Of a stretch of DNA of 64,000 nucleotides, positions 28,795 to 30,435 are shown piece after piece. Position numbers and translations under genes: made by a program. Location of the stretch: contig JACBWW010000052.1 in NCBI GenBank assembly GCA_020086605.1, forward strand, positions 642,594 through 706,593. The letters run 5' to 3'. The stretch is from Lanius collurio (taxonomy: Eukaryota > Chordata > Aves > Passeriformes > Laniidae). The notes beneath the pieces are model-generated. The model saw only the letters and a list, made by a program, of their open reading frames with translations, had not been told where the DNA came from and ran no database searches. The first letter of the stretch is position 1. Each line of letters begins with the position of its first letter.

Positions 28795-30435
28795 TTAATT
28801 TCTTCCCTCCCTCCTTTTCATCCCCCTCATCGGCATTGCAAAAGGGATTAATGGCAAACGAAAAGACTGGTTTTGTGAGGGGTGCCAGAAAGGGAAATTT
28901 GCGCTGGGCATATATGGGGGGAAAAGGGACATGGGATAAAAGGGGAAGGTGGGATAGGGAAAAGGATAGGGATTATGGGGATATTGTCTAGCATATTTAC
29001 TGCCTTTCACAGGAACACCCCCAGGGCCTGTAACACATGCAGCCTGTGGGCCCTTTCTTCCTTGCACAAGTTTAAATTCTACTCTTTCTCCTTCTTCTAA
29101 GCTTGGAAAATCACTTTTGGGATTCTTTTTTACAATAGCAGATTAATGGACAAAAATGCTTTCTCCAGTATCGTTTTTCAACAAGAAACCGTAATTTTTC
29201 TTTACATTATACCACTTCACAGTTCCAAGAACCCTAGCTGTGATAACCTTTACATTTTTCCTCATTCTTTTGTTCTTGCTTTCACTTTCATTTTTTCTCG
29301 CATCGGAGCTGCTGCAGCCAGGACCGCTGGGGCCGGGGCCACCAGCGCATTCCTGTTGCAGGGTCTGGACTCCTCGGGATCACGTGTGGGACCCAGCAGG
29401 TCCCACAGGCCATGCTGATGCACACTGACCCTGCCAGCTGCTCCACCTCCGGCCACCTCTGCACTGCTGTTTGGCGCCATGCTCACTTCCCCCTCTGGAA
29501 CTCCGCATGACTTCTCCATGCTTTCTGGGTGTTCGCGCAGCTGCATGGTCTCGCCCTGTGAGGCGTTCACGTGTGCGCGGCTTTGTATTGCCGGCACTGC
29601 CGCTGCTGTTGCTGTTGCTGCTGTCGGCTGTGTGGCCATCGGCTAGCACGGTTCCTTTTTTGCCCCCACACCCCTCTGGCTCTGATTGGCGTGGCTCACC
29701 ATGGTCGCCATAGCAACTGCCACAATCGCCGCTGCCTTTCTTGGTGCAGGGTTCGGACTGTCTCTCGCCATGCGGCATGGGGCAGCCATCGCCAGGATGC
29801 GCCTCAGCCGCCACTGCCCTCGCCACTGCCTCAGGGTGAACACCGCCGGGCCTGCGCCGCCACGCTGCTCCTGGCTCCACTCCTGCCGCCTCCGGTCTCT
29901 CCGCCGGCTCTGCTCTCGCCGTGCCTGGCCTCACTGGCTCTCCCACCCATGGGAGCTCCCTCGCCACTGCCCGCAATGCACTCGGCACACGCGGCCAGGG
30001 CCATGCGGTCTCCAGGGTGGCGGAGGAGTCCCCTGCAACACGGGCACTGCTCGACCACGTGTTTGCTGCTGATACAGTAGCAGGGCACAGCTGACACTGC
30101 TCAACACTGTCTGTAATCAGGTAATATTCATGGAAACAGTCCTGCATCAGCCCGTTTTTTGATTCGGAAGTTAACTGTGTCCAAACATTCTTCCAAAAGT
30201 CCTTGGTAAGAATCAACTTCCAAGAAACATAGAAGAAGTTTTTAAACAGCCATGACAAAAAGTGTCTTAATTCTTTCTGAGTTTGAATTAAGCTAAAGTC
30301 TACATATTGCTGTTCCAGAACCTTTTTTAGCTTAAGGTAAATGTCTCTTTGTGGTTCAGACAGCCATGAGCACTTCCATGAGTCCTCAATCGTTCCGAGA
30401 TGGGACATCAAAATGAAAGCAAGAAGAGATATCAA
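28795..30435 (-). pseudogene. Gag matrix - GC-rich linker - Y-box cold-shock domain fusion, two stops
   Basis: One frame runs from ATG at 30435 to a stop at 28797-28795 (546 codons), broken by TGA at 29382-29380 and TAA at 29145-29143. Residues about 15-110: matrix-like Gag domain (IYLKLKKVLEQQYVDFSL, FLSWLFKNFFYVSW, DFWKNVWTQL). Residues about 115-385: Ala/Arg/Gly/Ser linker. Residues about 396-483 (29250-28987): a Y-box-family cold-shock domain with VLGTVKWYNV, an RNP1-like NYGFLL, RNP2 IFVH (the TAA follows directly), KKNPKSDFP, EEGERVEFKLV and VTGPGGVPVKGSKYA. Tail: Pro/Phe/Tyr-rich. Host Y-box proteins bind RNA and single-stranded DNA; a role in RNA binding or packaging is inference. The frame identity was checked by position arithmetic (all parts differ from 30435 by multiples of three). 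Confidence 0.85.
28987..29250 (-). other. Captured Y-box cold-shock domain
   Basis: This is the part homologous to YBX1/YBX2/YBX3. Diagnostic words are VLGTVKW, NDTGESIFVH, AIVKKNP, EGERVEF and TGPGGVPVKGSKYA; the last is almost the Y-box wording (GPGGVPV.GS.YA). LIN28 or bacterial cold-shock proteins fit less well because they lack the GVPV.GSKYA ending. It is intron-free, as expected for a transcript captured by retrotransposition. Which YBX paralogue was the donor cannot be told by eye. Confidence 0.85.

What the first reader, a model, noticed from the sequence alone, without database searches (positions are those of the whole stretch)
28795..30435. Retroelement frame fusing a Gag matrix-like domain to a captured Y-box cold-shock domain
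Seen: one minus-strand frame, inside an element with paired 297-bp LTRs and a perfect 6-bp TSD, runs from a matrix-like Gag domain through a GC-rich linker into a cold-shock domain with VLGTVKW, IFVH, EEGERVEF and TGPGGVPVKGSKYA, then a Pro/Phe/Tyr tail. Known: Y-box proteins bind RNA and single-stranded nucleic acid and package mRNA. Inference: the element captured a host Y-box-like transcript, and the fused domain may have helped RNA packaging or chaperoning in place of the missing nucleocapsid. I know of no described element of this kind, but could not search.
Basis: partly seen in the sequence, partly recalled or inferred. Interest (0 to 1): 0.92.

Follow-up and report, generated by a model that had tools for sequence, protein, structure and literature searches.

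The report
Retroelement family carrying captured Y-box domain
This is one damaged copy of a high-copy family of small endogenous retroviral elements whose only gene joins a viral matrix domain to a captured host RNA-binding (Y-box cold-shock) domain that natural selection preserved while the elements spread.

Summary
Window 28282-30788 (minus strand) is a 2.5-kb LTR element with 297-bp LTRs (94% alike) and a 6-bp target-site duplication. Its interior encodes a class II Gag matrix domain, a basic linker and a complete Y-box cold-shock domain (CSD) with an aromatic/proline-rich tail. This copy has two in-frame stops. It is not a one-off. In the same 1.10-Gb genome all 150 scored CSD places (of 1213 candidates) exceed the Pfam cut-off, and 26 of the 30 fetched lie beside LTRs of this or a related family. 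Thirteen of 150 lie in open frames of 504-509 aa; the three of these examined run matrix-linker-CSD-tail unbroken. Several lineages share this plan, their CSDs 54-73% identical to YBX1. dN/dS in the CSD is about 0.22 in frame against 0.9-1.4 in shifted frames (0.42 against 0.63-0.76 in a less selected set), and RNA-contacting aromatic residues are nearly invariant. So a host Y-box sequence was captured, fused to Gag matrix and kept under purifying selection. There is no capsid or zinc-knuckle nucleocapsid, so the fusion most likely binds and delivers element RNA to a helper retrovirus's particles; that step is inferred. I found no printed description in the searches made.

The parts
28276..28281 (.). 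target-site duplication, left copy (ATGAAC)
   Evidence: read directly
30789..30794 (.). target-site duplication, right copy (ATGAAC)
   Evidence: read directly
30492..30788 (-). 5' LTR (297 bp)
   Evidence: 94% identical to the other LTR; 40 scored places of 3277 candidates in the genome
28282..28578 (-). 3' LTR (297 bp)
30472..30489 (-). primer-binding-site-like stretch directly after the 5' LTR; resembles a tRNA-Ala 3' end (tRNA named from recall)
   Evidence: TGGTGGA at this place in 16 of 21 copies printed, a variant in 4, not seen in 1 whose LTR end the aligner cut
28579..28595 (-). polypurine tract directly before the 3' LTR
   Evidence: AGGGTGA at or across the LTR border in 19 of 21 copies printed; the other 2 have only partial LTR matches
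30079..30393 (-). Gag matrix (MA) domain, class II type
   Evidence: E 6e-9 to the MA region of a class II ERV in the window; 12 copies aligned; no Pfam match
29236..30078 (-). basic, Ala/Gly/Pro/Arg-rich linker in place of capsid and nucleocapsid; holds in-frame stop 29380-29382 in this copy
   Evidence: composition measured in three open copies
28990..29235 (-). Y-box-type cold-shock domain; in-frame stop 29143-29145 in this copy
   Evidence: PF00313 on both halves; YB-1/YBX2 best in the PDB; tblastn with other copies
28795..28989 (-). Pro/Phe/Tyr-rich C-terminal tail and terminator codon (28795-28797; stop there in 30 of 31 copies)
9409..10760 (+). second copy: 5' LTR, MA and linker; breaks off at the linker/CSD junction, no CSD, no 3' LTR
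11125..11418 (-). lone LTR of the same family
   Evidence: 88% identical to 28282-28578
23970..32520 (-). older host endogenous retrovirus into which the element inserted (LTR pieces 23970-24322 and 32167-32520)
   Evidence: direct repeats; Gag_p24 and integrase matches above, zinc-knuckle match just below the curated cut-off, minus strand

Best explanation
The element is one damaged member of an old, high-copy family of non-autonomous class II LTR retroelements. A host Y-box (YBX-type) coding sequence without introns was captured and joined in frame behind the Gag matrix domain and a basic linker, while capsid, nucleocapsid, protease and pol are absent. The product is a single protein of about 505 aa: matrix - basic linker - cold-shock domain - aromatic tail. 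Most likely mechanism: the CSD, together with the basic linker, binds element RNA; the matrix domain brings the complex to the assembling Gag of a helper class II retrovirus, which supplies capsid, reverse transcriptase and integrase. Shown: the architecture, the repeated retrotransposition, open single frames in other copies, and purifying selection on CSD and matrix. Inferred: RNA packaging or chaperoning, and the helper.
For: LTRs, TSD, PBS and PPT. All 150 scored CSD places (of 1213 candidates) are above the Pfam cut-off, and 13 of 150 lie in 504-509-aa open frames. 30 of 30 DNA-selected CSD loci have a family LTR 3' of the domain, 21 of 30 also a 5' LTR in the same orientation within the 1.5 kb held. 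Loci L053, L061 and L065 each hold one open frame (509, 506, 505 aa) from the matrix start to the tail, with linker R+K 37-41 against D+E 17-22 and no CCHC knuckle. NG86 dN/dS over 82 CSD codons: ratio of sums 0.22 in frame against 0.89/0.88 (24 main-family copies) and 1.13/1.41 (16 copies of all lineages, in frame also 0.22) in shifted frames; matrix 0.30 against 0.87/1.10. Thirty copies chosen by DNA identity, stop codons skipped: 0.42 against 0.63/0.76. Variants shared by 3 or more copies have lower N:S (36:24) than singletons (139:41), p 0.012. Residues matching YB-1 Y72, F74, F85 and H87 are kept in 43, 43, 43 and 42 of 43 copies (RNA contacts from passages of PMC9928419). [quoted passage not shown]
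Against: No RNA-binding, packaging or expression data. The helper was not identified. The matrix domain has no Pfam or fold match, and its match to the window's class II ERV is weak by profile (E 0.0025). One RNA-contact residue, E121 of YB-1, is glutamine in 17 of 18 element rows, and K118 varies in at least 3 of 43. A fusion without capsid has no obvious way into a capsid lattice. The set with dN/dS 0.22 was chosen partly by Pfam score and required an open CSD frame, as did the 43 copies used for the contact residues. The set chosen by DNA shows a weaker signal (0.42), and its tail barely any (0.60 against 0.66 and 1.04). The shared-variant test is weak for the CSD core alone (p 0.056; 0.029 without CpG) and absent for the tail (p 0.5). 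Seven of 33 copies share a stop at codon 144, before the usual end. The tree of 82 columns does not by itself exclude repeated capture.
Confidence: 0.55

Rival explanations
1. The captured CSD works on element RNA outside the particle: like germ-line Y-box proteins it masks, stabilises or controls translation of element (or host) RNA in germ cells; packaging is unaffected.
For: One element CSD (L041) fits YBX2 best, including the VKGSRYAPNR end; YBX2 as a germ-line mRNA-masking protein is recalled. YB-1 is cited as stabilising newly made HIV RNA (passages of PMC6040738). The same selection data fit.
Against: The in-frame fusion to a Gag matrix domain, which is also conserved (dN/dS 0.30), points to an assembly-linked role. 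Older lineage L071 fits YB-1 slightly better than YBX2.
Confidence: 0.25
2. The CSD is a passenger: copies spread through LTRs, PBS and PPT alone, and the captured frame has no function in the element.
For: Many copies are broken: 10 of 33 have a stop in the first 80 codons and the window copy has two. Non-autonomous LTR elements without coding capacity exist (recall).
Against: In-frame dN/dS 0.22-0.42, below both shifted frames; no stop position shared by more than 2 of 33 copies before codon 144, and the terminator kept in 30 of 31; 13 of 150 places in 504-509-aa open frames.
Confidence: 0.08
3. The selected unit is a host gene: a diverged host Y-box paralogue with an aromatic tail was copied into LTR elements more than once, so the low dN/dS reflects the host gene.
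For: dS between the oldest lineages and the main family often exceeds 1, and the host YBX genes of this genome could not be retrieved.
Against: Old and young lineages share plan, tail and eight residues absent from YBX1/YBX2. LTR start, PBS and PPT resemble each other across lineages. Low dN/dS also holds among copies of the main family alone.
Confidence: 0.08
4. The fusion protein interferes with, or regulates, other retroviruses (a parasite of helper Gag assembly, or a co-opted antiviral), rather than delivering RNA.
For: A matrix domain without capsid could act as a dominant interferer; 13 of 150 scored copies are open over 504-509 aa.
Against: Selection is seen across many separate insertions; no single conserved locus was identified, though none was looked for.
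Confidence: 0.04

Closest known systems
Crocodilian ERVs with captured KIT-ligand (CrocERV29) and nectin3 (CrocERV31), Chong 2014, PMC4299795 (passages and section 15 read)
   Same: endogenous retroviral lineages that captured a host mRNA, spread in several copies, with purifying selection on the captured frame
   Different: secreted or membrane proteins between pol and env or replacing env; here an RNA-binding domain fused in frame to Gag matrix, with capsid, nucleocapsid and pol gone, and far more copies than the six nectin3 insertions described
Y-box proteins YBX1 / YBX2 / YBX3
   Same: CSD 54-73% identical to YBX1 over 82 residues in 18 element rows; RNA-contact aromatics kept
   Different: no long basic/acidic C-terminal domain; a Pro/Phe/Tyr tail instead; joined to Gag matrix and LTR-flanked
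MMTV Gag with host YB-1 (Bann 2014, as cited in PMC4486188, passages)
   Same: a class II (beta) retrovirus uses a Y-box protein with viral RNA during assembly
   Different: there YB-1 is a separate host protein recruited in trans; here the CSD is encoded in cis as part of the Gag-derived protein
Non-autonomous LTR elements that keep only gag (e.g. plant TR-GAG; recalled)
   Same: short, no pol, gag-derived frame, mobilised in trans
   Different: those keep capsid/nucleocapsid parts; here a captured host CSD stands in their place
Acute transforming retroviruses (gag-onc fusions; recalled)
   Same: host coding sequence fused to gag in a defective element
   Different: those are recent, single captures of growth-control genes; this is an old, endogenous, high-copy family with an RNA-binding domain

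Membership tests
LTR retroelement (non-autonomous) | paired LTRs with target-site duplication | tested here: met
   297-bp LTRs, ATGAAC duplication in the window copy; LTR pairs in 37 elements, a shared 6-mer at the borders found automatically in 11 of 37 (many LTR ends were cut by the locus or the aligner)
LTR retroelement (non-autonomous) | primer-binding site and polypurine tract | tested here: met
   16 of 21 and 19 of 21 copies printed; the tRNA itself was not tested
LTR retroelement (non-autonomous) | multiple dispersed copies sharing the interior | tested here: met
   40 of 1023 candidates scored by DNA, 150 of 1213 by PF00313; interiors checked in 30 and 30 loci
class II (beta-like) retrovirus Gag | matrix domain homologous to class II MA | tested here: met
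   tblastn E 6e-9 in the window to the stretch upstream of p24 of a class II ERV; 11 of 12 aligned copies match there; profile only E 0.0025
class II (beta-like) retrovirus Gag | match to Pfam Gag_p10 or a solved MA structure | tested here: inconclusive
   no Pfam Gag match; model pLDDT 59, no fold match
class II (beta-like) retrovirus Gag | capsid and CCHC nucleocapsid | tested here: not met
   no Gag_p24 or zinc-knuckle match in the window copy; no CCHC pattern in three open copies
Y-box protein family (vertebrate YBX) | PF00313 CSD closest to YBX | tested here: met
Y-box protein family (vertebrate YBX) | RNA-contact residues W65, Y72, F74, F85, H87 | tested here: met
   43, 43, 43, 43, 42 of 43; W65 is part of the extraction pattern, so its count means nothing; E121 is Q in 17 of 18 rows
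Y-box protein family (vertebrate YBX) | long C-terminal domain with basic/acidic islands | tested here: not met
   the 64-aa tail holds 24-30 Phe/Tyr/Pro/Trp in three open copies; so a captured domain, not a Y-box protein
ERV with captured host gene under selection | captured frame conserved at protein level in the element | tested here: met
ERV with captured host gene under selection | identified donor gene in the host genome | not tested
   host YBX search did not complete

The most novel reading that the evidence does not exclude
A retroelement lineage replaced its viral nucleocapsid with a captured host Y-box cold-shock domain fused to Gag matrix, and used it for its own RNA packaging or chaperoning over tens of millions of years and several lineages; that is, a retroviral assembly function rebuilt from a host RNA-binding protein that related viruses recruit only in trans.
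Probability: 0.42. Interest if true: 0.93.

Novelty: new variant of a known kind. Interest (0 to 1): 0.83.

Why it matters
Host gene capture by endogenous retroviruses is known, but the cases I read of concern signalling or surface proteins. Here the captured part is an RNA-binding domain, fused to Gag, retained under purifying selection and present in several lineages, with 150 scored CSD places in one genome. It makes a long-standing question testable: why do retroviruses such as MMTV and HIV depend on YB-1, and can a Y-box domain replace nucleocapsid functions? It also offers a large natural set of Y-box domain variants that evolved under a defined selective task.

Tried and rejected
Rejected: chance similarity (both CSD halves pass the Pfam cut-off apart); ordinary flanking host sequence (LTR 3' of the CSD in 30 of 30 loci); neutral passenger. 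Considered and left open: repeated capture, donor identity, exact function.

Led nowhere: Pfam, PDB-sequence and fold searches for the matrix domain; protein search with the matrix region (68 candidates, none at E <= 0.001); scan of viral contigs with the L041 CSD (2 pattern matches, none a relative). Flanks of L004, L005 and L039 were listed for a helper's frames and not taken further. Paper searches, read as listings only: 3 of 3 listed; 20 of 228; 15 of 33; 15 of 154; 8 of 8; 9 of 9; 6 of 9; 25 of 97; 15 of 228. In the listed titles and abstract starts I saw no element with a cold-shock domain; the papers not listed were not seen. PMC6523648 and PMC4272516 hold neither 'cold shock' nor 'Y-box' in the main text (find only). 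Repbase and Dfam could not be searched.

Unexplained: two copies without CSD (window 9409-10760; L008/L039) break off within a few tens of bases of the linker/CSD junction, without a 3' LTR in the DNA held.

Full report
What is there. On the minus strand, 28282-30788 is bounded by two 297-bp repeats, 94% identical, with the duplication ATGAAC at 28276-28281 and 30789-30794. A primer-binding-site-like stretch follows the 5' LTR (TGGTGGA at that place in 16 of 21 printed copies, a variant in 4, not seen in 1) and a polypurine tract precedes the 3' LTR (AGGGTGA at or across the border in 19 of 21). The pieces on either side of the second stop match Pfam PF00313 over positions 2-29 and 35-65 of 66, each above the curated cut-off, and find Y-box proteins first in the PDB.

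The N-terminal part. Pfam, PDB sequences and a low-confidence model (mean pLDDT 59) give nothing. But the window's other end holds a class II endogenous retrovirus on the minus strand with Gag_p24 (E 8e-27), a zinc knuckle (9e-5) and a retroviral protease (2e-12). A stretch upstream of its p24, at 3001-2774, is 34% identical to the element's N-terminal domain (E 6e-9 in a search of this window alone). Eleven of the 12 aligned copies match there at E 6e-4 or better; the twelfth, L014, gave no row. A profile of the 12 finds the two stop-separated halves only at E 0.0025 and 0.9. I take the domain as a class II Gag matrix domain without a match to the curated model.

A family, not a single event. 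An LTR search of the genome (1.097 Gb, 2132 contigs) scored 40 of 3277 candidates, 89-100% identical. A DNA search with the CSD scored 40 of 1023 candidates; the 39 beyond the window's own copy are 92-94% identical. In the 30 loci returned, blastn finds a family LTR 3' of the CSD in 30 of 30, a 5' LTR in the same orientation in 21 of 30 (in L010 it is inverted) and the matrix piece in 21 of 30 within the 1.5 kb held. Three of the others (L011, L019, L031) carry a diverged matrix, 33-38% identical in protein. PF00313 scored 150 of 1213 candidates, all above the cut-off; 138 of 150 have no stop inside the match and 13 of 150 lie in open frames of 504-509 aa. Of the 30 of these fetched (the window copy among them), 26 have LTRs of this or a related family and 4 (L046, L049, L050, L056) could not be resolved in the flanks held; the other 120 were not examined. 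Three of the 13 long frames were among the loci (L053, L061, L065): each starts at the matrix and runs through linker and CSD to the tail. In copies where both ends could be read, matrix and CSD frames agree in 10 of 18 (counted); the other 8 are out of phase, presumably through small indels.

Lineages and age. Older lineages (L071/L043, L072/L051, L044, L047, L063) have LTR pairs of their own, 1.7-2.3 kb apart. Where printed, the LTRs begin like those of the main family (TGTGGAGATACC or TGTGGAGGTACC against TGTGGAGGTGCC). L071 and L072 show the plan MA-linker-CSD-tail, and the tail matches that of the window copy at DNA level (68-72%) in several of these lineages. CSD identity to YBX1 is 54-61% in the main family, 65% in L041 and L060 and up to 73% in L071/L072. 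Eight positions carry the same residue in at least 85% of the 18 element rows but in neither YBX1 nor YBX2. This and the shared tail favour one capture; the small tree alone does not prove it. LTR-LTR K2P distances of 37 elements run from 0.017 to 0.156; the window copy is 0.065. With a recalled avian rate of about 2e-9 per site per year this is roughly 4 to 39 million years.

Selection. Pairwise NG86 dN/dS over 82 CSD codons is 0.22 (ratio of sums) in 276 of 276 pairs of 24 main-family copies and 0.22 in 119 of 120 pairs of 16 copies across lineages. The same DNA read in the shifted frames gives 0.89 and 0.88 (251 and 259 of 276 pairs), and 1.13 and 1.41 (119 and 118 of 120). The matrix gives 0.30 against 0.87 and 1.10 (55, 55 and 54 of 55 pairs of 11 copies); against the diverged L031 matrix only 3 of 11 pairs were usable in frame (0.23, with 0.47 and 1.54 in shifted frames). 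These copies needed an open frame and some were found by Pfam score, which biases the value downward. The 30 copies found by DNA identity, with stop codons skipped, give 0.42 against 0.63 and 0.76 for the core (428, 406 and 314 of 435 pairs) and 0.60 against 0.66 and 1.04 for the tail. In 33 copies, variants seen once have N:S 139:41, seen twice 33:14, and seen in three or more copies 36:24 (Fisher, once against three or more, p 0.012; 0.006 without CpG). For the CSD core alone 46:13 against 8:8 (p 0.056; 0.029), for the tail no difference (p 0.5). So the frame was under purifying selection while the elements spread and decays after insertion; for the tail the evidence is weak.

Mechanism. In YB-1 the CSD binds RNA through W65, Y72, F74, F85, H87, K118 and E121 among others (passages of PMC9928419). 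Y72, F74, F85 and H87 are kept in 43, 43, 43 and 42 of 43 element CSDs, against a mean of 0.60 over all columns (W65 is part of the extraction pattern and does not count). E121 is glutamine in 17 of 18 rows. The linker is basic (R+K 37-41, D+E 17-22 in three open copies) and no CCHC pattern is present in them. [quoted passage not shown] YB-1 is cited as stabilising new HIV RNA and as supporting MLV and MMTV production in an RNA-dependent manner (PMC6040738, passages). The simplest reading is that this lineage put the Y-box domain into its own Gag-derived protein, so that the RNA is bound by CSD and linker while the matrix leads it to a helper's assembly site. RNA masking or stabilisation outside the particle is the main rival.

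Place among known things. Two captures in crocodilian ERVs (KIT-ligand, nectin3) are the closest published parallels that I read of (PMC4299795, passages and section 15). I found no described element of the present kind in the listings, several of which were capped; most subscription journals, Repbase and Dfam were not searched. I rate it a new variant of a known kind (host gene capture by a non-autonomous ERV) with an unusual captured function.

Limits. The host YBX genes, CSD-less relatives at genome scale, and the helper were not obtained because the genome search was mostly unavailable; counts from it are of the best-scored candidates only. No expression, binding or mobility data exist here.

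Noticed in passing
window 155-3031 (-): Part of a class II endogenous retrovirus: matrix stretch (2774-3001), Gag_p24 (1729-2097), zinc knuckle (1237-1530), protease (464-1063), cut by the window start; a candidate for the kind of helper needed.
   Followed up: partly
window 23970-32520 (-): Older endogenous retrovirus with Gag_p24 remnant (27443-27658), zinc-knuckle-like (26869-27144, just below the cut-off) and integrase zinc-binding (26588-27052) pieces; the CSD element is nested in it.
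   Followed up: partly
window 9409-10760 (+) and L039 4742-6194 (-): Two copies with 5' LTR, matrix and linker break off close to the linker/CSD junction and lack a 3' LTR; cause unknown.
   Followed up: partly
L011, L019, L031: Copies with the same CSD but a strongly diverged matrix domain (33-38% identity), pointing to recombination between lineages or deep divergence of gag.
   Followed up: no
L010 56-348: Family LTR in inverted orientation beside the 5' end of a CSD-carrying copy.
   Followed up: no
window 39282-39581 / 47647-47946 and 48148-48447 / 53931-54230: Two more long direct-repeat pairs (97% and 99% alike, 8.4 and 5.8 kb apart), probably LTRs of young proviruses.
   Followed up: no
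window 15769-18515: Direct repeats about 2.4 kb apart (209 bp at 92%, 122 bp at 86%), perhaps another short LTR element; no CSD found there by tblastn.
   Followed up: partly
window 53159-53364: 57-bp tandem repeat, about three copies, inside the 48148-54230 repeat pair.
   Followed up: no
L042, L045, L048, L056, L068: Further diverged CSD lineages not sorted in detail; the origin of the P/F/Y tail is unknown.
   Followed up: no
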